From: Haliclona indistincta
Taxonomy: Eukaryota; Porifera; Demospongiae; Haplosclerida; Chalinidae
Assembly (NCBI GenBank): GCA_964017065.1
Contig: OZ024784.1
Location: 2,416,598 to 2,480,597 of the forward strand
Direction: 5' to 3'
DNA length: 64,000 bases
Below are positions 3 through 34,143 of the stretch, piece by piece. The first letter of the stretch is position 1. Each line of letters begins with the position of its first letter. The translations under genes were made by a program, and so were the position numbers. Below the pieces are notes generated by a model, which was not told the DNA's origin, made no database searches, and saw nothing but the letters and a program-made list of their open reading frames with translations.

Positions 3-1379
3 ATGGGTCATCGCAGAAATATTGTAACCTTTCTTGTGCCTCCTCGCATCAAAAAAGACTGCATGTCTTTTCTCTTGAAAGAGATGCTGATACCTGACAA
101 TCCTGAGCATTTGACAGAGAATGGACCGATCTATTACTCCGTTCCTCATCGCTGCAGCAATGTCCCTCCTGTCCCTCCACGTCGCCCAACAATGTGCACT
201 CCTCGTGGAACAATGATTCAACCATCAGGACCATTCTACTACAATGAAGCAGAGATAGCTGTTCTATCAAACACGCACAAAAGGGCTCCACCTCGTGAAC
301 CACTCCGCCATCTAAAACCTCCGATGCCACCCCCTCCTCCTCCTTCATACTCACCTCCTCCTCCTTCACACTCTCCTCTTCCTCCTCCTCTGCCACCAGC
401 ATATCACGAAATTGAATCGTCAACTCCTGCTAGAAAGAAACCACCTCCCCTTCCTTCTCGAACAATTCCTCGTGGGGAAAACTACGCAAAGAATGCCCCT
501 GCTTTAGCTCAGCCGTACTTGAAGTGGACAAGTCACACCACATTTTCCAGCAGATTACCAAGTTTTTCAAGTTCACACACCGATGAGACTGATGACAAAT
601 CACTCATTACAATGCCTTATCAAATTAGCCATCGCATCTACATCACAGACTCTGGTCAAGTTAAGCACGAACCTCAAGTGCTTGGGAGTGGTGGTGGAGA
701 GGTACGACGAAAAGGCAAACCACCTGCACTGCCTCCTCGAGATGTGACCATGCTAACTCCTCCACGATCCCAGCAAGCTGGTGCTAAAGAAGTTGCCTCC
801 TTCCAGCGTCCAGGTCCATCTGCCAGTTTTATATCTCCGAAGCAGCGCAGATCAGCAACATCAAGAGTCAGGAATTTCAGTGAGAGTGAAAAAATGACCA
901 GCGAATATCCATACCACTATGCAAAGAGCATTTCAGCTGAAGAGGGAGAGAAAGCTCCCTTTTCTACACCACCTCCTATCCCACTAAAAGAAAGAAGTCG
1001 AAGCAGTGATGACCATAACTACCTGCCTATTTCGCCACCTTCTCCATTCTCACCTCCTTTTTCTTCTCAACAGAAAGTCCCACAACCAAAACCTCGTTCA
1101 AGGACAATATGCTCTACCATGTCAGTGAGACATAACCAATCCTCACCTCAGCTTACAAGGAAAGCTGCTTCTGTCAAACCTCCTGTTCCTTTGCCTCGGA
1201 GAAAGACTATCACTAAACAAGATGGTGGAAGTCACTCTGTCAAAACTAGTCCGATAGCTCAACGGAGGATGCAGAGATCTCTCAGTTCAGGAAGTGTGAG
1301 CTCGGACGAATATATGCGAATAAACGTGTGTTATAAAGTAAATGACTTTTCTAATGGAAATCATATTTATAATATTTAA
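3..1379 (+). CDS. Proline-rich SH3-ligand protein, 3' part (partial)
   Basis: An open frame runs from the window edge to a TAA at 1377-1379, so the N-terminus probably lies outside the window and the first Met here need not be the real start. The protein is rich in Pro, Ser, Arg and Lys and carries several SH3-ligand cores: PPVPPRR, PPALPPR, PVPLPRR and PKPRSR, plus a polyproline tract around residues 105-135. Tyrosine-containing segments such as GPIYYSVPHR and GPFYYNE could be phosphotyrosine sites. No folded catalytic domain is visible. The composition suits the disordered tail of a signalling adaptor or kinase substrate. The last residues read past a possible splice donor near 1335, so the true C-terminus could differ. 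I do not recognise an ortholog. Confidence 0.7.
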   Translation: MGHRRNIVTFLVPPRIKKDCMSFLLKEMLIPDNPEHLTENGPIYYSVPHRCSNVPPVPPRRPTMCTPRGTMIQPSGPFYYNEAEIAVLSNTHKRAPPREPLRHLKPPMPPPPPPSYSPPPPSHSPLPPPLPPAYHEIESSTPARKKPPPLPSRTIPRGENYAKNAPALAQPYLKWTSHTTFSSRLPSFSSSHTDETDDKSLITMPYQISHRIYITDSGQVKHEPQVLGSGGGEVRRKGKPPALPPRDVTMLTPPRSQQAGAKEVASFQRPGPSASFISPKQRRSATSRVRNFSESEKMTSEYPYHYAKSISAEEGEKAPFSTPPPIPLKERSRSSDDHNYLPISPPSPFSPPFSSQQKVPQPKPRSRTICSTMSVRHNQSSPQLTRKAASVKPPVPLPRRKTITKQDGGSHSVKTSPIAQRRMQRSLSSGSVSSDEYMRINVCYKVNDFSNGNHIYNI

Positions 1380-1626
1380 CTGATTTTAATTCTTTGTCAT
1401 TGTGTTTTTTGTTTTGTATTCCCTAACCGTTCCTGACAACTATTACGTGACGTGTAGTCACAAGACGGACAACAGACATGATTTACACTCTAATTGAATC
1501 TACTACGTAGGCAAAACCCACAGCGCAGGAAGTAGTCTTGTCTATATACGAGTAATACGACTGTTGGTAAACGAAGCACTGAAGAACTAACTGCAGCTAA
1601 AACTTGATTGAGCACTGTTTTGAATC
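1380..1626. other. Intergenic, probable promoter of the bHLH-PAS gene
   Basis: This short gap between the proline-rich gene and the first bHLH-PAS exon has no convincing ORF. It contains a TGACGTG element at 1447-1453. That resembles a CRE/E-box-type site, but function is not shown. Confidence 0.3.
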
Positions 1627-4600
1627 ATGGCGGTTTCAAGGAGACAGAAAGAAAACGACACATTCAATGATATTGCACAAACCCTACCTCTTTCGGAGAA
1701 CGCCAAGGAGCTCGACAAAGCGTCTGTCCTGCGAGTGGCGATCCACTATTTGAAACTGCGAGATGTCCTCGCAGACTGTGAAAGTTTCAATGGCGACGAA
1801 TCACCTACCGGCGATGGTAAGCAAACACTAAAATGTACCGAGAAACTAAATTATTGCGATCTATAGCAGTCCCAGCTCCAAATCCTCTCTCTAAAACGTC
1901 GTCCGTGCCGAATTTCGCTAAAGATGTTCAGCAGGTTGGTGTGTTACATAATAACAACACGCATGTATGAATTGCACTGTATTGTGTTTGTACAGGCACT
2001 GGACGGTTTTATGATGATGTTGTCTCGAGATGGTCGCATACTCTACGCCACCGATTCAATCTCTCAATTCCTTGGTCTTCGTCAGGTCAGTTTAGTAACA
2101 TCAAAGAATTATCATTCATGCATTCTAATGTTTGTGATACTGCACGAAACATTAACATTTTGTATAAGACGATTGAATGGATGTAGTAATAGGTTTTGAC
2201 CCCCACATTATCTAACTGACAAAACAATAAGAGATAATATTTAAATACAAAGTGGAAGTGGGTCACATGAGTATTACACAAGGATACTTCATCAGGAGAC
2301 AGCTTTATTTGGTGTTGATTACATGTCGTAATTTGCCTCAGTTTGGTAGCTATTACAGGATGTTGGTCACCACGGTTATGCAAGAAACAGCAAACACAAA
2401 TATTTGGACCAAATCGTTTCAATTATTTCCAATATTGTTTTGCGCAGGTTGATGTAATTGGTGTACATATACAAGATATAGTACATCCACAAGATTTCAT
2501 GGACATGGCTACCATCTTTCATGCTCAAGGGAGAGACATTCCTCCAGGTTGGTTACCGACTGGGATTGTCCCAAATGACAGTGATATTATATAATATGGT
2601 TTCTTTGTTAGAGATGGAAGCACTTGGTAAGACTCCTCTCAGGCGAAACATAGTGATGCGAATGAGGTGTGCCTTTACTCCTAGCGTGAGATCCATAACA
2701 CGCTGCTCTAATTTTAAGGTGAGTCACATGAAGTGTAGTAGTGGGCTGCAGTGCATTAGAAACCAAGAAAGGCAATGCATCAAATTCAACACCTTATTCT
2801 GTGCGATATACTCCAAACCTCACCACAGTTGTACTTATGCTATCACGCTAATTTAATAGCACCACACAGCATTCACCAAAAATCAAAAGCCTAGTACAAT
2901 GGATGCTATAAACCCTTGCGTCCCTGGAGGTCTTCTACAACAAAGTGGACCGCTCTATCCTGTCTGAAGTATTGCACTTGTTAAACAACACGAACATCAC
3001 TAGTTTATGCATTTCTTAGAACAGTCCTTGTTGAGGTAGCAGTATAGGAAATTAGTCTGTCTCTATTTTCACAATGTTATGGTTTGTTATTTTATCCTCA
3101 GCCAATCTTTTGCTCAATATATCTCAAGTTCTCTGACAAGAAAATCAAAGAGGGAGAGTTTCTGGGAATGGTGATGCTCTGCAAGCTAGCCAGCACTATG
3201 AGAACAAGGGAACTGTGTGTTGGAGCTTTCTTCAAGACCAAACATTCATTGGACCTCAGTTACACAACTCTGGACACAAGGTAAGAGCAATGGAGGCGGC
3301 TGTGAATTAATGCTATGTGGTCGCATTGTGTAGGATTCGGTGGATTCTTGGCTTTGATCCAGCAGACATGGTGGGGCTAAAGGCCTATGAGTACTTCCAT
3401 CCACTTGATCTCCTAGCAACTTCCAGTTGTCATACCAACTGTAAGCATGCCTAATATCACACTTACTAATGTCATTCTGCCAGACAGAATTCTAATCACA
3501 TTTAATCACTCCACTGCCTACATATTCCCAACTCAATCCGATTGTGATATTCACTATTGTTCCCACACCCATAGTCATAATACCACATCTTGATCACTAT
3601 AAATACATCCCATTGGAAATCCTGTCTTGCAGTCTCTATAGCTACTAAAACCACTAAATCGTTTAGTTTCAACTTAATTTTGTAGGTGTAGCGCATGACC
3701 TAGAGTAGCATACAAAACACTTTATTTTATAGCATGTGACAGCATTTGTATGAAACTGTCAACAATGGCGTGGTAGTCAGTTGCCACAACAATATCACTC
3801 CCACAACTGCCATGATCGATAAGGTGCATTTTCGACAACAGAAGACAGCCGCAAACAAATTATACTTGTCCTTTTTGGACTTCCCAATGTAGTAGCTGTA
3901 ATTCACAAGTTTTTTGGTGTAAACATGTCGCAAGTTTATGGCTTTTTGCCCCACAGTACTTGTCAAGGGCTACTCACACAGTCCCTGCTATCGATTCATG
4001 AACAGAAGTGGAGATTGGGTCTGGGTAAGATCCAAGAGCCATGTCACCTACGACCCTATAACACATCTACCCAATGGGCTCTCCATTTACACTTGGATTG
4101 TAAGGTACGTCATACTGACACACAAATGATATGGTCAGGACATTACATCAATCTCATTAGATATGATGAAGAGGATGACCGGATGAAGGCCATCATGGCT
4201 GGTGATGACCCTGGCAATCTTGGAGTTAAGGAAATAGACCAAGAGTCAACATCCAGTAGCAGCCTGGATGTCAGTTCACTGTGTAATCCTAACTCTTCTC
4301 CTAAGCTGGAACCATCTGAGCAGACCACTCTTTCTCCACCTGCTCCAGTGCAGCAGTTATCCAGTGCCGAACACACTCCAGTACCTTCTCCTAATAAGGT
4401 AGATAGCTCTGTTCTTGCATTATCGTAATTCATTCTTGTTGCTTGCCTCCAGTCTCCCTCTAGTGCTGTGCTGTCTCCAAGTGGATACTCTCCTCCTCCA
4501 TCCTCATCTCAAATGTCCAGTCCTCCATACACTCCATATCCCTACAGCCCTGAGAAGACCTCTCCATACCAAGGCTACAACAACCAATCTCCCTCATACA

Positions 4601-5274
4601 ATCACTACCAGTTGCTACAGCAACCTCCACTCACACCATATGTCGATAACCAATCGGAAAACAACTACGCTGGAAGCCCCACTAAGAGCATCCATATAAC
4701 ACTGGCTAGTTGCAACCAATCCTCGGTTGACAGTCAACACGAATTGAGTCCACCCTATTCTGCTAGCAACTACAGCTTTCCTTCACCCACTAACAGCCCG
4801 TCTAACAGCCTTGGCTACTGTAGTGGTTCTGATTCCACTTCCTGTCCTTACAGTAGCCCGCAAACTCAGCATTCACCATATGCTGATGCTACCTTACCAT
4901 ACCTAGACACCCTCCCTGGGGTCCCTGGACTGACCATGGATGCTCAAGCTATATTCATGCCTGACCTCACTGGCTTCTCAGATTGTCCATTCCCTACAGC
5001 CGGCGAAACTAACTTTACTGAGGTATTTTCCAATGGAAGTCACCAGAAGCAGGCCACTCAAGGCATACAATACCAAGAGTCAACAATGATATTTGCTCCT
5101 ACAATGTCACAACAGCAACCCACAATGGGTGGCTATGCAGCACAAGCGAAGGCACGCTACAATCATATTGCCGTAGCAGGAGGCCACTCAAACGAGACCA
5201 GAAGATTGCGAAACGAAGGCACAGAGATCAAAGACATATCAAGGTGGCTACAAGAAAGTGCTCCTGTTCATTAA
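1627..5274 (+). CDS. Class I bHLH-PAS transcription factor (HIF/SIM/TRH-like)
   Basis: A spliced model has ten exons: 1627-1816, 1867-1934, 1996-2085, 2448-2547, 2611-2719, about 3103-3280, about 3332-3440, 3957-4104, 4161-4398 and 4453-5274. All joins keep frame. Exon 1 encodes a helix-loop-helix with the class I bHLH-PAS signature LDKASVLRVAIHYLKLRD. Exons 3-5 encode PAS-A (ALDGFMMMLSRDGRILYATD, then IVHPQDF). Exons 6-8 encode PAS-B and its PAC segment (SGDWVWVRSKSHVTYD). The last exon is a Ser/Pro/Tyr-rich tail of about 270 residues, suited to a transactivation region. The family acts in the nucleus as a heterodimer with ARNT. Only the C-terminal half of the basic region is present (SRRQKEND), so an upstream exon or reduced DNA contact is possible. 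Assignment among HIF, SIM and TRH is not resolved by eye. Confidence 0.88.
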
Positions 5275-5546
5275 CACTAAATAGATAGTGCCCCTAATAC
5301 CTGTATTTAACTGAATCATTTCACAACAACACTAACGACTTTCTATCATTATGCCAACATTAAACATTATGTACTATCACTTTCATCACGACCATAATAC
5401 CAATAATAATGTATGGTGCCGCGAGATTACAATTATTATGTTGTTGTCAATATTATTGTTATCAAAGGTACACATGACTAACACAGATCTTAAAGGTGTG
5501 CAATAAATACAAAAAATGTATGAAAATGGATTAATACGCAATAAGT
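5275..5546. other. Convergent 3' intergenic gap
   Basis: This AT-rich spacer of about 270 bp separates the stop codons of the two convergent bHLH-PAS genes. An AATAAA signal at 5502-5507 on the + strand fits the first gene. Nothing else is seen. Confidence 0.4.
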
Positions 5547-21149: not shown

Positions 21150-24100
21150 TCAAACATCAGTCTCTTCAAGTGGTCCATGTGATGGGCTGCGGATGCCACG
21201 TAGCATTGGTGAGGTTGGTATTAGAACTAGTGATTCTGTTGGAGAATGTAGCCTCTTAGAATACAATAGAGGCGAGGTTGGAACTAGTGCGAGTGGTCTC
21301 AGTGGTCTTAGTAACACTGGGGACTTTAATTCTTCTTTCTTCATTTTTGTCTCACATTTTCTTTCGCTCCCAGTTGGCATGCAATCTTTTTCTTCTTGGC
21401 AAGATCCACTCAGTTGTTTAGAAGAGGGTTGAGCAAAGTAGAATACTGAGTTCCTGACACTGTATGGTGACTGGTCCAGGGCTCCAGTGGCAACACTTTC
21501 AGAGCTTTGTCCAGTAGGATGTAACAGATTCTGTGGCTTGGCAGTGGTACTTGGTAGCTGAGGTAAGGAGCAGTCCTGGTTATCTTGAGAAACCACCACT
21601 GTTACTCCAATGGACCCACTTCCTTCTTCATTGGTAGGCTGTCTGGTGACACCTCTGATATTGGTTGAGTGGGCGAGCTGGCTTGTTAGTATGGAAATGC
21701 AAGTGCTTGGGAGGTTTTCATTGTGGCCACAATAAAGCAAACCGTGTTGCTCCTTTGTACTCACTTGGGAACTATTGTCATCAGCCACACTACCATTGTC
21801 AACACTAATGTTGCAATCAGTGTTGATAGGAGAGATAGATGAGTCATCCAAACTAGAGCCCTCTTCTAATATTGCATCCATAATGGGAAGCAAGTGGTGT
21901 GGCGAGGAAGGCACACAGCATTTCTTATAGCCATCATCCTCAGCTGGTGGAACGATACACAGCACTGGAATTGACTTTTGAGGGGAATCTGGGAATACGA
22001 AATGTTGTGGTTCCACTGCAGTTGACGTGTCCTGTCGATCACTGTACTGTTGTGATGAAGACAGTGTGGATGATGGTGTTGACTGATTATTACCAGAACT
22101 GTCTTGAAGCGTCAAAGCAAAGTTGTGACTACCTCTTCGTCTTCTCTTGAACAGTGACAGATCATTTGATGGATCTGGAGACGCTGCACTCTCATCATCA
22201 GAAATCGGTATAACTATACTCTCCAGCTTTGTGGTAGTTTCAAAGTTAATATGACTTCCTGAATTCTCTAAAGAGTGATCAATACATATTCCAGGCCGTG
22301 GATCATTCACTAAACTAGTAACACTCAATTCATGCTGGTAAAATGGAGAGTCACCAGCACCTCCAAAAGCATCTCGCTCAATTTTGCTCCACTGCTGTAG
22401 TCTCTTTGCCAGAAGTACTTGTGTCGGAGTCTGCTCACCCGATGCGCTGGTTTGGGCACCGCTAACATGCCCTAATAAAGAACTTTTCCTAGATTCGAGG
22501 GTATTTCTTCGTAAGGAAATTCTTTTCCCAGGCTTCCACAGCTCGTGACTCTCTCCTTCATGAAGAAGAATAGATGACGTGATGCCGTACTCATGATCAT
22601 CGGATTGTAGACTTAGCCTTCCAAACGATAACCTGGAAATGTCGGTTGTACGCCGAGGTCTTGATTTTTCCTCGTAGACTACAGACCCAGCAGAGTTGAA
22701 TGATAAAGAAGACACTGGAGAGAGAGGCACACTGTTGTCTTGCAAAACCACATTGTTGGTCAGTGGACCAATGTTGGGGGTAGAATAATCTGGAGGTGTT
22801 TTCCTGTTGGTGATAATGTATATACACTATTAGTGATCATAACACACAACAAAAACAACTATTTGACACTATCTGATAATAATACCAAACATTTTACATG
22901 ATTATACCTGAATCTCTTTTTCAGGTAAGTAGTTAGACGAGGCAGAAGGTAGGAATGGCGAACAGCAAGTGAGAACCAGGACAGCAGTAGAAAGAAAACG
23001 GTCATTCCCAGCAAAATCTGCAGTTTGTAAAGTGATGTAGGCGTGGTTATGTGAATCGACTTACGGTAACATGAAAGTAAGGATTGATGTGATGGAGGCT
23101 GAAATAAGTGAGCACATATCGAGCGGACGAAGGATAGCACTCGATGGGAGAGTCATATGGACACTTGTTTGACAAATCCTGCAACACTACTCTGGCAATG
23201 GCTGAGAAACCATAATAGGTTGGGTTGATGTAGAACAACCACTTGTACCTGAAGATAAGCAGTGAAATCAAAGTTTCGCTTTCATATGACACGAAGTGCT
23301 ATCTAGGAAAGATAAGGGCTTGTGTATCACCATTGTTTTGAGAGAATGCATCAACATCGGGCGTCATAACAAATCAGCGTTATCGTACCATCAATATTGC
23401 CCATAGTACTGTGCCGGGTTTCTGAGCACATGCTCCCAACATTAGCTTTGATGTGTTTCTATAGCAACAGTCTTTTGAAGGTGTTCCCATCATGAGAACT
23501 GACACACGATACATACCCATACCACAAATTGATTGATTCGCTCTGAACATGAACTTGTGGCTTACACTAGCAGTAACTCTAGTACCTTATAGAGTACTAG
23601 ATTGATAATATGTTATGTATAGGTGTCTGCCAAAGAGCCTGAGGTTAGCCAGAAGATAAACACAACAAACTTGGTTGTGGTGACAACGATACTAATGATA
23701 ATAAAGTGGCGATATACATTAATGGAACTAGGATAGAACCCACACAATTCTCACGGCCACCTGGTCCCCTGCATAGCAGCTAAACAAGGCAGTTACTAGT
23801 GATGACTACTACAACTGGTGAACATGAGATGTGAGTATTATTATGACCACTCCTCTTAGATCAGTCAACCATACAACCAGAGCAGACATAGCTAGTTTCA
23901 CTGGTTTCTTATTACTAAGAGTGCATGCACCTACATAGAAGATTGTACGGCCACATCCTTTAGAGGGTTAGTACAGTGGACACGTAATTACTGTGTGCAT
24001 GTTCAATGTTGTTACTATACATGTCTCTTTCTCGGTAAACAACTGTTATCGTGATTATTAGTTATCACAGCAAAGTACTTAGAGGTGCTCACCATAAGGG

Positions 24101-27100
24101 CATTAGGTTAGGTGGCACAAAGAAGCCTCCCGCAAACCCAGCAATGGCTGATAGAACGGGAGAGACACGATGAGCGTAGGTCGGTATGGAGGTGATGACA
24201 CTCATGAGCAGAGCTATCCAGGCTTGATTGAGAATGATGCTAAATGCGACCACTTGAAGAAAGACATAGACATTGTACTCTGAGTATGGAACAGCCTTTG
24301 TGTGCAGGAGAAGAAAACAATAGTAACAAACAAAAATGATAGCCTAGCTCGTACTGAAGACAACATGAATGACTAGTGCAATAACATTAACGCATACCAG
24401 CAGATATATTGATGTTGCACAAAATAAAATTGGAAGGGCACTAAGTGACGAAAACCGTATGAATGCTTGCAGAATAACGTGAATGGGTTTTCCAATTCCG
24501 TCGGAGAACTCTAGTGCAAAAATCTATAGAATTCCAAACAAACACATGAGATAACAAATTCCACAGTCAATGGTGACTAGTAGAAACATTTGCACAATTG
24601 AAATTATGGATTCACCTCCAAAGCAGGAGAAAGGTATCCATAAATTAAAGGAAAGAGGAACAATCCACTAGCACAACTGAACACGCCTAGCCCCGATAAG
24701 ACTAGAGTAACATTCTGTGTCTGAAAGTAGACGGTACCTGTGCGTGGGGGAGATAAGGTGTCTTAGCAATGCAAGTAACAAATCCAATAACCAGGACCAC
24801 ACAACACCATTCGAGTTAGATGAAATTGATGAAATTGACCAACTAGTCAATACATCGGTAAACACATTTTGTTGAATTACTGAATGACAGCCAATTGAAA
24901 TACCTAGCAGAATCCCGTAGACTGCAAAGATCACTGGCAGATAGAGTGTTTGTCCTATGTTTGCTCTCTTCATGGCTCGAGATTCAAGGGCTATAATGTG
25001 ATTTAGGAATCCTCCTCTTTCAGTGGTATTATTACTAGAGGGATATAAACACATCAAGTGAAGGAAGTTAGGACTAGGGTCACTAACCTCTTTTGTTTGT
25101 TGGATCCAGTCTCAGTTCCGTTCTTACCTTCTTCGATGGCTCTGCACACAGCAACACGCTCTTGAGTGCAGTTATAGTAGTTGAGAATAGCAACACGGCA
25201 GTCCTCACTACCCAGCATATCCATTATGGTATCTACACAGACACAAGAAGGTGCCAATGTATGAACTTAACACCATGCAGCTAACCAGCTGGGTTCTTTG
25301 AGTCCATGGTATGTAATCTCTTCACTGTGAGTGTAGCCTGCAAATGGGCTTCTACAAAGAACTCGTAAGCCTTTTCAGGCACCCCGTGATAAGCTACCTA
25401 CACACCATGATCAAATAAAAACAGTCAACACTAGCACTTTACACAGTATAGTTAGACTCACTTGTCCCTGGCAGAGGAGGATGATTTTGTGAAACATGTG
25501 AAATATCTCGAGTCGTGGTTGGTGGATAGTCAGAATGACTGCTCTGTTAGAGCCAGCCAGTCGATTGAGATAGGTCAGCAGCTCAAGAGAGGAAGAAGCA
25601 TCAAGACCTGCAATCAATATTTGTTATGTCTCGCAGTGCTTGCAAGTGTGTCTTACTCACCCGATGTTGGTTCATCAAGAAATATCATGCTTGGTAGATT
25701 GATGAGTTGCAAGGCTACACACAATCTTCTCTTCTGTCCTCCACTGAGTCCTGGACCAACACTACCACCCACTGGAGTGTTAGCAACAGCTTTGAGCCCA
25801 GTCTGCAGTATAGAACATGCAGTATCATAGCAATGCAGTACTACAGTGGTTACTCAGTGACATTTCTACCTCAACAATGATCTGCTCAACTCTCTCCAGT
25901 TTGTCTCGCATTGGTAACTTTTGGGGCAAACGCATCTGTGCAGCAAAGGTCAAATTCTCTCTGACGGTCAATTCACTATAGTACGGTGTCCCCAGCTGCA
26001 GTACATAGCCAGTATGGGTGATATACCAGTCCTGATTTGACTCCAGAGGTACACCATTAACGAAAATCTCTCCTTTGTAGTTGCCAGTATTTCGTCTTCC
26101 AGCTAGCAAATCCAGCAGTGTTGTTTTTCCGCAACCTGGACATATCATAAACATCAGAAATTGTTCAAAAATGATTTTTAATAATACCTGAAGGGCCCAT
26201 TATAGCTACCATCTCTCCTGGATTGAAATAGGCAGAAATTCCTTTCAAAATCTCTTTCTTTTTATTGGATTTGCTAAATTTCTTTTTCAGAATCTTTTTG
26301 AATTTAGAGCACTTGCTCATTTGCTGTTGTTGTTCATATTGCCGCCGAAACTGCTGGAGTTGACTGACCATATCTAGAACATGTGTGTGTAGGTATACAG
26401 CTAAAGATTGTGACGAGGGCAGTAACACACCGTTCATATCGCCACCTCTATTGTTATTATCATCAGAATTGCAAGCTTGAAAGTGACCAGCTGTTCCAAC
26501 ACTGCGCCTGCCCCTTCCTCTTGGTCGTTGTTGCTGTTCATATTGTCGTCGGAACTGATGGATTGCGCTGACCATGTCTACAGTGTGTGATAGCGCTAGA
26601 GGAGAGGTACATCAGCAGCATACCGTTTGTATCACTAGTTTCATCATTGTCATCATCATCAGGGTTGCAGGCTTGAACGTGACTAGCTCCAACACTACGC
26701 CTGGCTCTCCCTCTGCTCAACCCTGGCGGTTGTTCCTCATATTGGTTTCGGAACTGATCAATTGCGCTGACCATATCTACAGAGTGTTAGCATGAAATAG
26801 CTAGAAGTGTACAGCATTAATGCTGACCAGTTTCCTCCTCCTGTTCATTAGATTGAACTTGCCTCGATCTCCTCCTACGATAACCCTCTGACCCTCTTCT
26901 TGATGTCGTGCTGTTACCGCCATCACTACCAGCTGATAATGAGAGGAGACGTTTGTATCTTTGAGGTCCGGTAGCACTATTTGCAGCTCGCTTGAGTGCA
27001 GACTTGGAGAGAGTCACAGAATATCTAAAAATGAGATATATATATTAGCTCTTTAACTTGCAATGTAGAGTATTGCTTTTACTTGATGTTTAGACAAGCT

Positions 27101-28974
27101 ACAGAAATGGCGTCATCTTCATTGCAAGAAGGCAGCTGTATAAAGATATGAAATATTTCACATTGTGAGAATTCCGAAATAGTGTAAATCAGCAAAGAAG
27201 ACTGAAACTTGAAGACCGACATGACAAAAGCGATTCTGTGTTTAGTGTTACTAAACAAACTTGACGATCACAGAAATGACGTAAAAAACGTCACCATGTG
27301 GAATGCAAGGGTAAGAGTAAACACTTACAGTAGATTCTTCAACACTTGTCTGAAAAGCGCATTCCTCTACAACACGAAGTTGCTTCTTTTCTACTCTCTT
27401 GTAGCAGAGCATGAGAGTCACTTTAGCGATTCCACAAACAGCCGCTGATATTAACCCGGCACCCAGCAACACATACTGCACAACAGCACTCCAATACGGG
27501 CTCACTCTGCCGAGAATAACTTGATCAGGGCAGTTTAAGTTACAATGAGGCCCCTTGCAAGCATCCACATAGTGGATAGTGGTTTGGTTGCGCTGTGCTT
27601 CTAGCCAGCTGTGTATAGCCATAGCAATAGTAGGACCATGACTATTGTCAGGAAGATGGAGGGAAAATGAAGTCCATACTCTACTATTGACAGAGTGCCT
27701 GCAAGAAAATAACATATGAAAGGAATTTAAAAATAGCTAATTTTTACTTACAAGAAGGCGTTGTTTGCTTTAACTCGAGCTACAGAGGTAGCAGCCAGTA
27801 ATCCATCCTGCTGTGACAAGCTCGAGGCTGCAAGATAGACGTGTTGAAAACACGACGTGGAATAGTAGCTCAAATTCTTGAAAGACAAAGAAGTGCTTTG
27901 CAATGAGGAATGCATTGAACCTCCGAACTCTGACACTGTACGAAGTAGGTCCACGACAGCGATCGATGTGGGTTTGTTTTGCTGCAGTAGCCGAGTGAGA
28001 ATATATAGGTCATACTTACTCATGACAACCAGTGTGGGGATATTGGGATAGAGAGAAGTGTCCCTCAGCAACTGATGGGCAGTGAGACAAGCTGTAGGTT
28101 TGCTTGGATCACTACAACTACCAATGATCTCCTTGTTCTTTACGAGATTAGTAATGTTCATCTTGGTCACCTCGTTCGTTATTGTGTCTCGAAAGTCAAT
28201 GAACCATGAAGAGTCAGTGATTGCTGACAGCCGACATGTCGAGGGTAGTTTATCGTGCAACCACTTAGCGTGATTCAACACGCCCACCCCACCTGCACTG
28301 CTGCCTGCGAAAACCACCTCACTTGCATTGCTGAAATTGTATTGCTGCACGAGATCTGACACGACGCTTCGAAGCACAATCGCACCGCGAAAGGTGAACT
28401 GGTGAGAGGTAGCTGTTGGATCAAATATGAAATTGAAGCCAGGCTGCAAGGCAAGTTTGTAGCTTGCAGTCTGCTGCAACCAAAGGTCACTGGTACAGTA
28501 CGGAATAAGGATATGATTGTACGAGTAAAAGTCTGGATTTTTTGAGATGTTTGCAGAGAGAAGATCTTCTCCTTCGATACTCCATGACCGAGAAAGCTTG
28601 GCAGCACTTGGAGCAAACCGCCACAAAGAAGTCATGAGCTTTGAAGTCACTGAGAGAGGATTATTTCGAAATTTGTTCCATGCAGCTGTTACATTGACAA
28701 CACGACTTCTATTGACAGTAGTGGTATAGTGGTCCCTTACATGCTCAACAATGAATCGCTCATTGCAGGACTCTGGGGTAGTACAGCCACCACCTCCCTC
28801 TAGGAACACAACCCACCTGGTATTAGACGGGTCAATACGAGCGAAATAGCCAGCAGGTGTGAAGTCATTGCAAAGAGCTCCTCTTTCATAAGGTCGGGAA
28901 ATATTCCTCCAGTGTAGACTGCCAGAGGACAGATTCACAAAAGACAGCAAAGTAGCAAACAGCAGACGACGCAT
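21150..28974 (-). CDS. NOTUM-like carboxylesterase fused to ABCG half-transporter
   Basis: About nineteen minus-strand exons chain in frame to give roughly 1,900 residues. Exon 1 (28974-27752) starts with a signal peptide and encodes a NOTUM/pectin-acetylesterase fold. It has the oxyanion strand [11 protein letters not shown], nucleophile motif GSSAGG (Ser226), Asp322 (KYDLYIL) and His378 (CFQHVYL), so the triad looks intact. Exon 2 (27698-27329) finishes that fold ([13 protein letters not shown]) and adds one membrane span. Exon 3 (27135-27083) opens the ABC domain ([12 protein letters not shown]). After an Arg/Gln-rich insert come Walker A GPSGCGKTT, LSGGQ, Walker B MIFLDEP and H-loop ILTIHQPR, then ABCG membrane exons (24,738 to 22,908). 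A final 1,655-bp exon adds a long Ser-rich tail ending ETDV. Exon 1 has no stop and exon 3 no start codon, which supports one gene. ABCG half-transporters dimerise and move lipids or sterols; the substrate here is unknown. Confidence 0.85.
26190..26780 (-). repeat. Triplicated phase-1 exons inside the ABCG gene
   Basis: Three successive exons (about 26777-26622, 26576-26433 and 26374-26190) begin with the same block, [33 protein letters not shown] and [18 protein letters not shown]. The first two also share an [14 protein letters not shown] core and an Asp/Asn-rich end. Each exon starts in phase 1 and the first two also end in phase 1, so duplication or skipping keeps frame. The third runs into the real nucleotide-binding domain ([20 protein letters not shown]). 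The array therefore sits between the first strand of the ABC domain and Walker A. Confidence 0.85.
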
Positions 28975-31277: not shown

Positions 31278-34143
31278 TTAATATGGTTTGTCATGGGGAG
31301 TGGTAAACGTCACACACTGCAATGAAAGAGAAAGTGCAGCAGAAGGTTAATTTCAAGAAGCCTTAATGTGTAATTTTCTATATACATAAAATAACATTGT
31401 GTTAGTCTTACCAGCTGATCCAGGATTTCTGTTAGCTTCTCCTTAGAGAGCGATACTGGTGTAGTGCCTGACTTAAGTCTCAGTTGAATATCGCTGAGTT
31501 GTAGTGGCTGTAGAAACCCATAAGCGGATACTGTGTTAGTACAGTCATGTTGGTATCACCTTAAACAGTAAAATATCATTGTAGAGCTTTTGGTTTGTCA
31601 TTATAGCCTGTATTACATCTCTCTCTTGAGAACCACTGTCCTGCAGTTTGGTCGTCTTCCTTGACAATTTCTTACCACCGCCTCCTTGTTTTTTGTTCTC
31701 GACCTCCTTTTCTGCTGTGCCTTGTTCATCTATGTAGAATAATTTTAGAAGATTTTATGTATTATACTCACTTATTAGTGGGTGAGTGTAGTCATAGATC
31801 TCCTCTAGTTTTACAATCATTCGTTTCTTAGGCATTGCCCGCACACCGAATCCCGAGCATTGTCTCTACACAATCACATTTACTTTACTACCATCACTGT
31901 AAAACAATTTCACCTTCAAATGAGGTGTTGGCATGGTCTGATAGTTGGGCATTGGGGTGATGGTGTCTCCTGACTCAGGAGGGATTGGCTGGTTACCAGG
32001 TGTTATCATCGCCTCTGTCACTTCAGTCAAATCAGCGGGAGAGTGGAATGAGCTGGGGAGCTGGATTGCACTGAGTGGTAATGGCGAAGGCTCTGTTAAT
32101 GGGATTTGAGGTAATGGAGATTGTGATGGTGAAAAGTGTGATGGTAGTGGTGATAGAGGAGATTGTGACAGTAGAGGAGGTGATGGTTGAGTTGGAGGTA
32201 GTGATGGTGGTGGTTGTGAAGGAGACAATGAGGATGACGATATTGAATAAGGAGATGGAAACTGAGAAGATGTGCATAAAAGTGAAGTTGACTTTAGTGG
32301 AGGAGAAGGTGACTTTAGTGGAGAAGGTGACTTTAGCGGAGAAGGTGACTCTAGCGGAGAAGGTGACTTTAGTGGAGAAGGTGAATTTAGTAAAGAAGGT
32401 GGAGGTAGTGAAGGTGACTTTAGTGGAGATGGTGACTTTATTGGAGATGGTGGAAGTAGTGAAGGTGACTTTAGTGGAGATGGTGACTTTATTGGAGATG
32501 GTGGAGGTAGTGAAGGTGACTTTAGTGGAGATGGTGACTTTATTGGAGATGGTGGAAGTAGTGAAGGTGACTTTAGTGGAGATGGTGATTTTGTTTGTGT
32601 TTGTGGTGGTAGAGTGTCTGAAAAGTTTCTATTTTCATCTTCCTGCTGGTCTTTACAGATCTTCACTAACTCTTCCACACCCCAACTACAAACGCACAAC
32701 GTGTATACAACAAGCACTTTCTTCGGACTCACATTTCAGCTTGTGTGATGAGTTCTTGTCTTTCCTCATCTCCTAAGTTAATCGGTGCTGTTGCAGAGTA
32801 CAGGAACGTCAGCAGAGTCATCACTGATGAGTGACTGAATGCAGATAGATCCAGTTCATTGGAATTGGATTCAAGTACCTGTAACATGCACAAGTGAAGT
32901 TCATAGACTCTAGTATGCGCAGTAATAGTAGCTTCTTCTATACTTTTCTTAGTTATATACTCTGACACTGCTTCACTCATTACAAACAGTGCATAGTATC
33001 ATAAGTTTGAATCATCATACTTAACCTCTTTCATCCTGGGACACCTGCAGCCCAGTATTGCCGAGTGTGCGTGTATCCTCTTTCCACCTTTGGTGATCAC
33101 TGTTAGATCAGAGAAGGAAGGGCAGTCAACAAGAGTGAGGAGAGCATTGGACAGGCTATCCAGTGAACCAGCACATGTACCCACTACACCTGGCAACTCA
33201 ACCTAACAAAAAAAAAAAATTTGATACTGACATCATGCACAAATTGTGACATACTGGTGGTGAAGGACGAGCAATAAACTGACTGAGGGCTGGCACATAA
33301 AACTCCTCTTTGTCTTGATCCTGACTTTTGCTCAGTTCCCACATGGTCATGTACTCGGTTGTACCACTCTTCTCACTCACCATCTCCTTCCCTGTAGCAG
33401 CTTCGCCCACATCAGCAGAGTCGTGAGATGAGACAGTGAAAGGTGGTGTACACGAGAACTCCTCTTCTATAGCTTCCTCTTTTATCATTTGCTCTGCTCT
33501 CTCTTGGAGCAACTGCCAGGCCTCATCAGGGGTTGTAGTGAGAACAAGGAGAGGAGAAGGAGGCCGGACACTGTTGACTCCTCTCCTGAAAGAGACAAAG
33601 GATTTTAAAAACAGAGTGAGAAGATAAGGTGCGTACTTTCTCTTTCTCTTCCTGGTATCTACCACCAGAGGAGCATGAACATTTTCTCCTGGCTCAACTG
33701 ATGCTGACAGTGCCTGAGCCAGCTGGAGCTGCTCCTCTTCAATGGTGCTGAGTAAACTGAGATAAAAAAGAACACTTCAACGAGTATCAACATAATACCA
33801 ACAGAGTTTACAGAGAAACCCACAAAAAATCCAATAAAGCAAGTACACCCATGTTCAACTTTACCATTCTTCACTTAGTTTTGGTATTTCTGTTCGAGGC
33901 ATCTTGAAGTCATTTTCTTCCTCCCCTTCTTTGTTTGGTAGTGGGTCTGACTTAGCTAGTCGAATATTTACCTATAAAAGCAGCATATACTGCAGGTAGA
34001 AAGTGAGTGGCTCTTACTTGTGAAGTACTAAGAGCAGAAAGGGTGAAGTTTGAAGAGTCACTGGATGAGGGTAGAAGAGGTTTGCTAGATCGAGTAAAAT
34101 GCTTCTTTTTTCGAAGTGACAAGCGACCACGATTAGATTCCAT
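31278..34143 (-). CDS. SLX4: SLX4 structure-specific nuclease scaffold
   Basis: About ten minus-strand exons run from ATG at 34143 to TAA at 31278-31280. Domain order matches SLX4. An MLR-like region that binds XPF in relatives comes first (IEEEQLQLAQALSASVE, then TTPDEAWQLLQERAEQMIKE). A BTB/POZ domain follows (CPSFSDLTVITKGGKRIHAH to LLTFLYSATAPINL). Next is a long Ser-Pro repeat linker. The C-terminus has MPNYQTMPTPHLK, an SAP-type segment GFGVRAMPKKRMIVKLEEIY, and an SLX1-binding-type end (KLYNDILLFKPLQLSDIQL to LTEILDQL). SLX4 scaffolds XPF-ERCC1, MUS81 and SLX1 in Holliday-junction and crosslink repair. I see no UBZ zinc fingers at the N-terminus, unlike vertebrate SLX4. Exons: 34143-34020, 33965 to about 33866, about 33760-33645, 33588-33260, 33216-33026, about 32883-32732, 32732-31912, 31882-31772, 31732-31562, 31510-31411 and 31320-31278 (several approximate). 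Confidence 0.88.
32287..32590 (-). repeat. Coding tandem repeat (SLX4 Ser-Pro-Lys linker)
   Basis: A run of near-identical units encodes SPSPLKSPSLLPPSPIK-type repeats within SLX4. The unit is about 60 bp, with shorter 15-bp subunits at the 32287-32390 end. Every visible unit keeps frame. It translates to a disordered linker dense in SP and SPxK sites (CDK-like sites). Confidence 0.9.

What the first reader, a model, noticed from the sequence alone, without database searches (positions are those of the whole stretch)
21150..28974. One gene encodes a NOTUM-like esterase fused to an ABCG transporter
The exon chain joins a secreted NOTUM/PAE domain with an intact Ser226-Asp322-His378 triad, a membrane span and a complete ABCG half-transporter (Walker A, LSGGQ, Walker B, H-loop, TMD). 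Exon 1 to exon 2 (TT/G) and exon 2 to exon 3 (phase 0) keep frame. The NOTUM part has no stop and the ABCG part no start Met. NOTUM removes the palmitoleate of Wnts; ABCG proteins move lipids and sterols. I know of no described protein combining the two. A coupled ester hydrolase-exporter, or release of a lipid or lipid-modified ligand, is inference.
Basis: partly seen in the sequence, partly recalled or inferred. Interest (0 to 1): 0.93.

Follow-up and report, generated by a model that had tools for sequence, protein, structure and literature searches.

The report
Notum-like esterase fused to ABCG transporter
A sponge gene encodes one long membrane protein that joins a Notum-like esterase, an enzyme type known for stripping fatty acids from Wnt signals, to a lipid-exporter-like half-transporter; the same fusion sits undescribed in databases for other sponges and for cnidarians.

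Summary
The fusion is real by sequence evidence and belongs to an old family. The window gene (minus strand, 28974-21150) splices in frame as 19 GT-AG exons into 1,889 aa: signal peptide, NOTUM/PAE esterase, membrane span, ABCG ATPase, ABCG membrane domain, long tail. A diverged paralogue 2.6 Mb away has the same layout, with only a 43-bp intron at the domain junction. Two searches gave 37 database relatives: all carry PF03283, 36 also an ABC domain, 26 all three Pfam domains. They include three sponge classes, Clytia, stony corals and one yellow-green alga; one is a complete ORF on what looks like an assembled transcript. The esterase triad is kept in every row covering it; one coral subclade lost the ATPase signature. 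In this genome the two fusions are the only NOTUM-type genes found, beside three Wnt loci with the acylation motif. Function is inferred: an extracellular esterase tethered over an ABCG exit, acting on acylated cargo or ligands. Eight paper searches listed no description; some lists were cut.

The parts
27752..28974 (-). Exon 1: start Met, signal peptide (about aa 1-19, inferred) and most of the NOTUM/PAE esterase, with Ser226 (28299-28297), Asp322 (28011-28009), His378 (27843-27841)
27329..27698 (-). Exon 2: cysteine-rich end of the NOTUM domain, membrane span (aa 480-506, about 27484-27404), start of the cytosolic stretch
27136..27328 (-). Intron 2 (193 bp) at the domain junction; holds an in-frame ATG at 27222; no AATAAA/ATTAAA
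27083..27135 (-). Exon 3: first conserved stretch of the ABCG ATPase side ([10 protein letters not shown]...)
26828..27024 (-). Exon 4: linker before the ATPase core
26624..26776 (-). Exon 5: first of three related repeat exons ([16 protein letters not shown]...)
26431..26577 (-). Exon 6: second repeat exon
26188..26373 (-). Exon 7: third repeat start, then the ATPase core up to Walker A
25870..26135 (-). Exon 8: rest of Walker A, Q-loop
25661..25802 (-). Exon 9: LSGGQ signature, Walker B
25462..25607 (-). Exon 10: D-loop, H-loop
25286..25397 (-). Exon 11: end of the ATPase domain
25088..25232 (-). Exon 12: end of the ATPase domain and ATPase-to-membrane linker
24904..25034 (-). Exon 13: start of the ABC2 membrane domain
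24616..24737 (-). Exon 14: ABC2 membrane domain
24398..24523 (-). Exon 15: ABC2 membrane domain
24093..24295 (-). Exon 16: ABC2 membrane domain
23065..23248 (-). Exon 17: end of the ABC2_membrane match and the loop before the last span (loop assignment inferred)
22908..23017 (-). Exon 18: last hydrophobic span
21150..22803 (-). Exon 19: serine-rich C-terminal tail of about 550 aa and the stop codon

Best explanation
One gene encodes one polypeptide. An N-terminal signal peptide puts a NOTUM-type serine esterase outside the cell; a single span crosses the membrane; a cytosolic ABCG ATPase, an ABCG-type membrane domain and a long cytosolic tail follow. As an ABCG half-transporter it should dimerise, which would hang two esterases over the outer end of the export path. 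Most likely working (inferred): the ABCG part brings an acylated lipid or lipid-like cargo to the outer leaflet, or presents it there, and the tethered esterase removes an acyl group, making release one-way; a lipidated protein outside, such as Wnt, could be the substrate instead of exported cargo. Shown by sequence: gene structure, domain content, conserved catalytic residues, family and its spread. Inferred: topology, dimer, direction, substrate, coupling. The confidence is for the whole statement; the fusion alone I hold at about 0.95, the export-coupled mechanism alone at about 0.35.
For: In-frame 19-exon model, 1,889 aa; PAE, ABC_tran and ABC2_membrane over cut-off; paralogue B with the same layout, 1,805 aa, 43-bp junction intron whose one ATG is out of frame (read); A and B are 40.7% identical in NOTUM, 62.1% in the ATPase domain, 44.6% in the membrane domain, and 11 of 18 A introns have the same alignment column and phase in B, 2 more lie within 3 columns with the same phase. 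Relatives: 11 of 11 hits and 32 of 32 carry PF03283; of the 37 distinct proteins 36 also carry PF00005 and/or PF01061 and 26 carry all three. P0001 is one complete ORF, header comp27452_c0_seq1:72-5408 (that this is a transcript-assembly name is recalled). Triad: Ser 39 of 39 rows, Asp 39 of 39, His 38 of 38 rows with a residue there; a hydrophobic segment follows NOTUM in 39 of 39 rows. N-glycosylation sequons are most enriched in the NOTUM part (1.78 x composition; 1.35 membrane domain, 1.04 linker and ATPase, 0.98 tail; 31 of 39 rows). The predicted structure of exon 1 has Notum crystal structures as all 50 listed PDB matches. Most clades recur in the NOTUM and ABCG trees.
Against: No RNA reads for this gene itself. 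The in-frame ATG at 27222 allows an ABCG-only isoform. No activity or substrate evidence. One coral subclade (P0072, P0073, P0074, P0079; P0073 and P0074 are named as isoforms of one Montipora protein) has LSGGQ replaced by LTELQ/LTKLQ/FTELQ while keeping the triad, so ATP-driven export is probably not needed in every copy. The exon-1 model is of middling confidence (mean pLDDT 68.3, pTM 0.74).
Confidence: 0.6

Rival explanations
1. Tethered Wnt deacylase: the fusion is the sponge's NOTUM, with the ABCG part serving to anchor, place or regulate the enzyme at the membrane, or to handle the freed fatty acid.
For: A Drosophila NOTUM query (315 aa of joined pieces) finds only the two fusion genes in this genome (4 of 4 matches); the other PF03283 matches (14 of 18) lie in a C9 cluster of three units with the YCDG motif (that this motif marks plant-type PAEs is recalled). 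Three Wnt loci are present and all three have a CHG[VI]S-type motif.
Against: Clytia has two published Notum genes (PMC4169000, passages read); translated primers of these do not match the Clytia fusion P0056, though primers in untranslated parts could not match anyway, so their separateness is likely, not proven. A yellow-green alga has a similar layout (P0061); that such algae lack Wnt is recalled. Walker A Lys is kept in 37 of 37 rows with a residue there and LSGGQ/ISGGQ in 29 of 39 rows, more than a mere anchor needs.
Confidence: 0.25
2. Two neighbouring genes: NOTUM with a membrane anchor and a separate ABCG gene, wrongly joined.
For: In-frame ATG at 27222 inside intron 2, and intron 2 (193 bp) is the second longest of the 18 introns.
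Against: Paralogue B has a 43-bp junction intron with no in-frame ATG; P0001 is one ORF on what looks like one assembled transcript; joined models come from many species and several sources; no AATAAA/ATTAAA in intron 2 (a weak test here).
Confidence: 0.04
3. ABCG exporter with a catalytically dead or purely structural extracellular NOTUM domain, such as a cargo-binding cap.
For: No enzymatic test exists; the oxyanion-side motif varies (EGGGGC, ESGGxC, ESGSGC).
Against: Ser, Asp and His are kept in every row that covers them, also in copies whose ATPase signature has decayed, which points to selection on catalysis.
Confidence: 0.08

Closest known systems
NOTUM (Wnt/ghrelin deacylase, PF03283, PDB 4uyz, 4uzj)
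   Same: Fold (50 of 50 listed PDB matches), Ser-Asp-His triad, GSSAGG-type nucleophile elbow, YCSSDxW-type motif and CN..CP end
   Different: Known NOTUM is a secreted single-domain enzyme (recalled); here it is joined through a membrane span to an ABCG transporter
ABCG half-transporters (ABCG1, ABCG2, ABCG5/G8; plant ABCG25)
   Same: ATPase domain before the membrane domain; Walker A, LSGGQ, Walker B, H-loop intact in A and B. The top PDB score was Pdr5-type, a full transporter counted over both halves; ABCG2 was the best half-transporter
   Different: Extracellular enzyme plus an extra N-terminal span; long linker before the ATPase core; long tail
ADP1 / AtABCG24 / AtABCG28-type ABCGs (recalled)
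   Same: Signal peptide, extracellular domain and extra span before the ATPase domain (architecture recalled, not tested here)
   Different: Their extracellular domain is not a NOTUM esterase (recalled)
Peptidase-containing ABC transporters (PCATs; PMC6959990, start of abstract seen in the listing)
   Same: A hydrolase built into a dimeric ABC exporter that processes what it exports
   Different: Bacterial peptidase, different ABC class, processing on the cytosolic side (recalled); no peptidase domain found here

Membership tests
NOTUM/PAE esterases (PF03283) | Curated Pfam profile over cut-off | tested here: met
   A 139 bits, B 124.7 bits, cut-off 26.6
NOTUM/PAE esterases (PF03283) | Ser-Asp-His triad with the nucleophile in a GxSxG-type elbow | tested here: met
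   39 of 39, 39 of 39, 38 of 38 rows with a residue there
NOTUM (rather than plant-type PAE) | NOTUM-type YC[ST]SDxW motif and best match to NOTUM | tested here: met
   A and B have it; 10 of 13 rows do, P0054, P0057 and P0061 do not. PDB hits 8 of 8 NOTUM, Foldseek 50 of 50 listed. No plant PAE was compared, so the contrast rests on motifs
NOTUM | Removes palmitoleate from Wnt | not testable with these tools
   Needs an enzyme assay; pocket residues were not compared
ABCG half-transporters | One ABC_tran followed by one ABC2_membrane domain | tested here: met
   Both over cut-off, in that order, in A and B
ABCG half-transporters | Walker A, Q-loop, LSGGQ, Walker B, H-loop | tested here: met
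   Intact in A and B; signature not intact in the coral rows P0072, P0073, P0074, P0079
ABCG half-transporters | Dimerises and transports | not testable with these tools
   none
ADP1/ABCG24/28-type | Sequence kinship to those ABCGs | not tested
   No such sequence was knowingly compared; architecture recalled only
Peptidase-containing ABC transporters | C39 peptidase domain | tested here: not met
   No such Pfam domain in A or B at E 0.01

The most novel reading that the evidence does not exclude
An undescribed family, present in the common ancestor of sponges and cnidarians, of ABCG exporters carrying their own extracellular deacylase; in sponges it is the only NOTUM-type enzyme and acts as an ATP-coupled Wnt (or lipid-ligand) deacylase, so that acyl-ligand control and lipid export were one machine early in animals.
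Probability: 0.2. Interest if true: 0.92.

Novelty: new variant of a known kind. Interest (0 to 1): 0.74.

Why it matters
This sponge has Wnt genes, yet no free-standing NOTUM was found in its genome; the two fusions are its only NOTUM-type genes found. An enzyme-transporter fusion kept in three checked sponge classes, in Clytia and in stony corals, with its catalytic triad unbroken, points to an unknown lipid or acyl-ligand process early in animal history that can be tested by expressing the ectodomain and by knockdown. The coral copies with an intact esterase and a decayed ATPase signature suggest heterodimers, as in ABCG5/G8 (precedent recalled).

Tried and rejected
Separate genes: rejected (43-bp junction intron in B; single-ORF entry P0001; recurrence). 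Chance adjacency: rejected by the same. Plant-type pectin acetylesterase as the kind of the window domain: rejected on motifs; the C9 units carry YCDG in three of three and LEGGGWC in two of three (MEGGGVC in the third), A and B carry neither. Identity of the Clytia fusion with the published Clytia NotumA/NotumO: not supported; translated primers match P0056 at no more than 4 of 6 residues, but primers may lie outside the coding part. Origin of the Tribonema copy (independent fusion, old inheritance or transfer): left open; its membrane domain is 14-23% identical to eight others, its ABC2_membrane score is 26.5 bits, just under the cut-off of 26.9, and the tree program warned of long branches meeting. 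Whether NOTUM split from the fusion or the reverse: not resolvable with one NOTUM row. The first profile search found one fusion among 50 hits because the ABC part drew in other transporters; the region searches solved this. The whole-genome PF01061 search listed neither fusion gene; exons are scored singly there. An attempt to collect other ABCGs of this genome as tree outgroups gave none that I used, so the ABCG tree has only plant, fungal and (recalled) algal ABCGs as outgroup. An earlier count said 12 shared introns; the count is 11.
Full report
What is there. The window lies at G000:C2:2416598-2480597 of a 144-Mb, 46-contig genome. The gene reads on the minus strand from 28974 to 21150. 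I traced 19 exons by hand from the sequence and checked them by script: every intron is GT-AG, the chain is in frame, and it gives 1,889 aa. Order: signal peptide (inferred); NOTUM/PAE domain; a hydrophobic span at aa 480-506; a conserved stretch in exon 3; a linker that includes three related repeat exons (5-7); ABC ATPase; ABC2 membrane domain; serine-rich tail of about 550 aa. Pfam scores exceed curated cut-offs for all three domains.

Intron 2 (27328-27136) contains an in-frame ATG at 27222 that reads openly into exon 3, so 'no start Met' is not correct. Intron 2 has no AATAAA/ATTAAA; the gene holds three such signals, at 26266, 26182 and 21330. In the 550 bases after the stop none was seen either, so this test is weak here.

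A second copy in the same genome. A PF03283 search of the genome gave 18 matches: two in the window gene, two at C2:5073053-5074177, and 14 in a cluster on C9. The C2:5073 locus (L009) continues into the same architecture: 21 exons, 1,805 aa, with PAE, ABC_tran and ABC2_membrane over cut-off. Its junction intron is 43 bp; its one ATG is out of frame with exon 3 (read). A and B are 40.7% identical in NOTUM, 62.1% in the ATPase domain, 44.6% in the membrane domain, 19.0% in the linker and 27.0% in the tail. Of 18 introns of A, 11 are at the same alignment column and phase in B, two more lie within three columns with the same phase, one lies two columns off in another phase, and four have no partner within six columns.

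A family. A profile search with A and B found P0001 (EukProt; 'complete' ORF 72-5408 on comp27452_c0_seq1, a name form that I know from recall as a transcript assembly's), with PAE, ABC_tran and ABC2_membrane in one ORF; the other 49 hits carry ABC domains without PF03283. Searching with the NOTUM part alone among long proteins gave 11 hits, all with PF03283 and an ABC Pfam domain; the same with P0001 gave 32 hits, itself included, all with PF03283. The union is 37 proteins; 36 carry PF00005 and/or PF01061 as well and 26 carry all three. The exception (P0068, Stylophora, named 'Protein notum-like') still shows ABC-like stretches in its sequence. Named sources: Ephydatia muelleri, Geodia barretti, Oopsacas minuta, Oscarella lobularis, Corticium candelabrum, Clytia hemisphaerica, Oculina patagonica, Porites evermanni, Stylophora pistillata, Montipora capricornis and Tribonema minus. 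Looked up: Oopsacas (Hexactinellida), Corticium (Homoscleromorpha), Geodia (Demospongiae), Oculina (Scleractinia), Tribonema (Xanthophyceae); the groups of the others are recalled. Two 'scpid' entries are, by recalled naming, the calcareous sponge Sycon. P0001 is 62% identical to the Oscarella lobularis protein over 99% of the NOTUM region searched. No hit bore a bilaterian name, but many hits are unnamed, candidates must share exact words with the query, and one search was capped, so absence from bilaterians is not shown.

Conservation. In a 39-row alignment (A, B and all 37) the catalytic Ser and Asp are present in 39 of 39 rows, His in 38 of 38 rows with a residue there (P0059 has a gap). 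A hydrophobic segment follows NOTUM in 39 of 39 rows (mean hydropathy of the best 19 residues 1.76 to 3.16; lowest in Tribonema). The ATPase signature reads LSGGQ in 28 rows, ISGGQ in one (Tribonema), is degenerate in four (P0072, P0073, P0074, P0079: LTELQ, LTKLQ, FTELQ), is ERGGE in P0054, whose model runs off into repeats, and is missing in five rows. The four degenerate rows are corals (Oculina; Montipora with two isoforms; Stylophora) and keep the triad; three of them have Gln in place of the H-loop His; Walker A is kept in the three that cover it. P0059 and P0081 lack Walker B, apparently because the models skip exons. Eleven cysteines of the NOTUM part are kept in at least 90% of 31 fuller rows, and N-glycosylation sequons are most enriched there (observed/expected 1.78; 1.35 membrane domain; 1.04 linker and ATPase; 0.98 tail; 8 of the 39 rows were left out). 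This fits an extracellular NOTUM part.

Trees. I used 30 of the 39 rows plus one NOTUM and one PAE for the NOTUM part, and 24 of the 39 plus five ABCG outgroup rows for the ABCG part. The same groups appear in both: the homoscleromorphs, the two Sycon-type rows, the demosponges with glass sponges and both copies of this genome, the corals, and Clytia with its kin. In the ABCG tree the 24 fusion rows are parted from the outgroups with support 100/99 and Tribonema falls outside the 23 other rows (99/99). Against: the program warned that long branches meet in both trees, Tribonema among them in the ABCG tree; A pairs with the glass sponges in the NOTUM tree (95/87) but branches before them in the ABCG tree; Sycon joins the homoscleromorphs in the ABCG tree only; the deep order of the NOTUM tree is open (fusion rows against the one NOTUM 84/64).

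Fold. AlphaFold2 of exon 1 with 16 relatives gave mean pLDDT 68.3, pTM 0.74, with confident core strands and weak loops. All 50 listed PDB matches, of 180 at E 0.001 or better, are Notum structures, TM-score 0.52-0.58 by query length and 0.60-0.66 by target length. By sequence, 8 of 8 PDB hits were NOTUM.

Wnt context. In this genome a query of joined Drosophila NOTUM pieces matches only genes A and B (4 of 4 matches). The three C9 units carry YCDG motifs, which I know from recall as plant-type PAE. Wnt (PF00110) gives seven matches in three places, and each shows a CHG[VI]S-type motif (that this serine is the palmitoleoylated one is recalled). So Wnt is present and the fusions are the only NOTUM-type genes detected. 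In Clytia, published NotumA and NotumO (PMC4169000, passages read) are described as related to Notum with a signal peptide, and the text has no mention of an ABC transporter; translated primers do not match the fusion P0056.

How it may work. Shown by sequence: one coding chain, conserved esterase residues, conserved ABCG residues in most members that cover them, the same groups in both parts. Inferred: the esterase is outside, two halves dimerise, and the esterase sits at the exit of the ABCG path. The simplest reading is a processing exporter: cargo is brought to the outer leaflet and deacylated there. A Wnt-deacylase reading is supported by the lack of another NOTUM-type gene here, and weakened by the likely separate Notums of Clytia and by the alga. 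Coral copies with a decayed ATPase signature and an intact triad suggest that catalysis is the more constrained function and that they may pair with intact copies.

Literature. Of ten paper searches, eight aimed at the fusion or its parts, one at ABCG24/28 and one at PCATs. No listed paper describes a NOTUM-ABCG protein by its title or the start of its abstract. Not all matches were listed: 15 of 41, 15 of 195, 12 of 14, 12 of 36. Only open-licence PMC papers are held. Apart from passages of PMC4169000 I saw search listings only.

Noticed in passing
window 26776-26188: Exons 5, 6 and 7 start with near-identical units ([16 protein letters not shown] / [16 protein letters not shown] / [16 protein letters not shown]) in the same phase: tandem exon duplication in the linker.
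   Followed up: partly
G000:C9:5022909-5029238 (L011): Three tandem PF03283 units with YCDG motifs (plant-type PAE by recall) in an animal genome.
   Followed up: partly
P0072, P0073, P0074, P0079 (corals): Esterase triad intact but LSGGQ lost, and H-loop His changed in three of four rows; Oculina copies P0065, P0067, P0072 and P0077 are listed with the same longest contig length (24174019), which suggests one contig.
   Followed up: partly
P0061 (Tribonema minus): A yellow-green alga has PAE, a span and an ABCG in one protein, but very diverged, with residues missing after Walker A in the model.
   Followed up: partly
P0052 (Ephydatia muelleri): The deposited model carries a long VWDGV repeat after the H-loop, probably a retained intron with a minisatellite.
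   Followed up: no
window 31866-32735 (-): A 289-aa open frame made largely of SPSPLKSPSLLPPSPIK-type repeats.
   Followed up: no
tails of P0001, P0051, P0052, P0053 and paralogue B (L009): By eye, a short ERQ..L..R-type motif recurs in otherwise poorly conserved tails; a possible partner-binding site.
   Followed up: no
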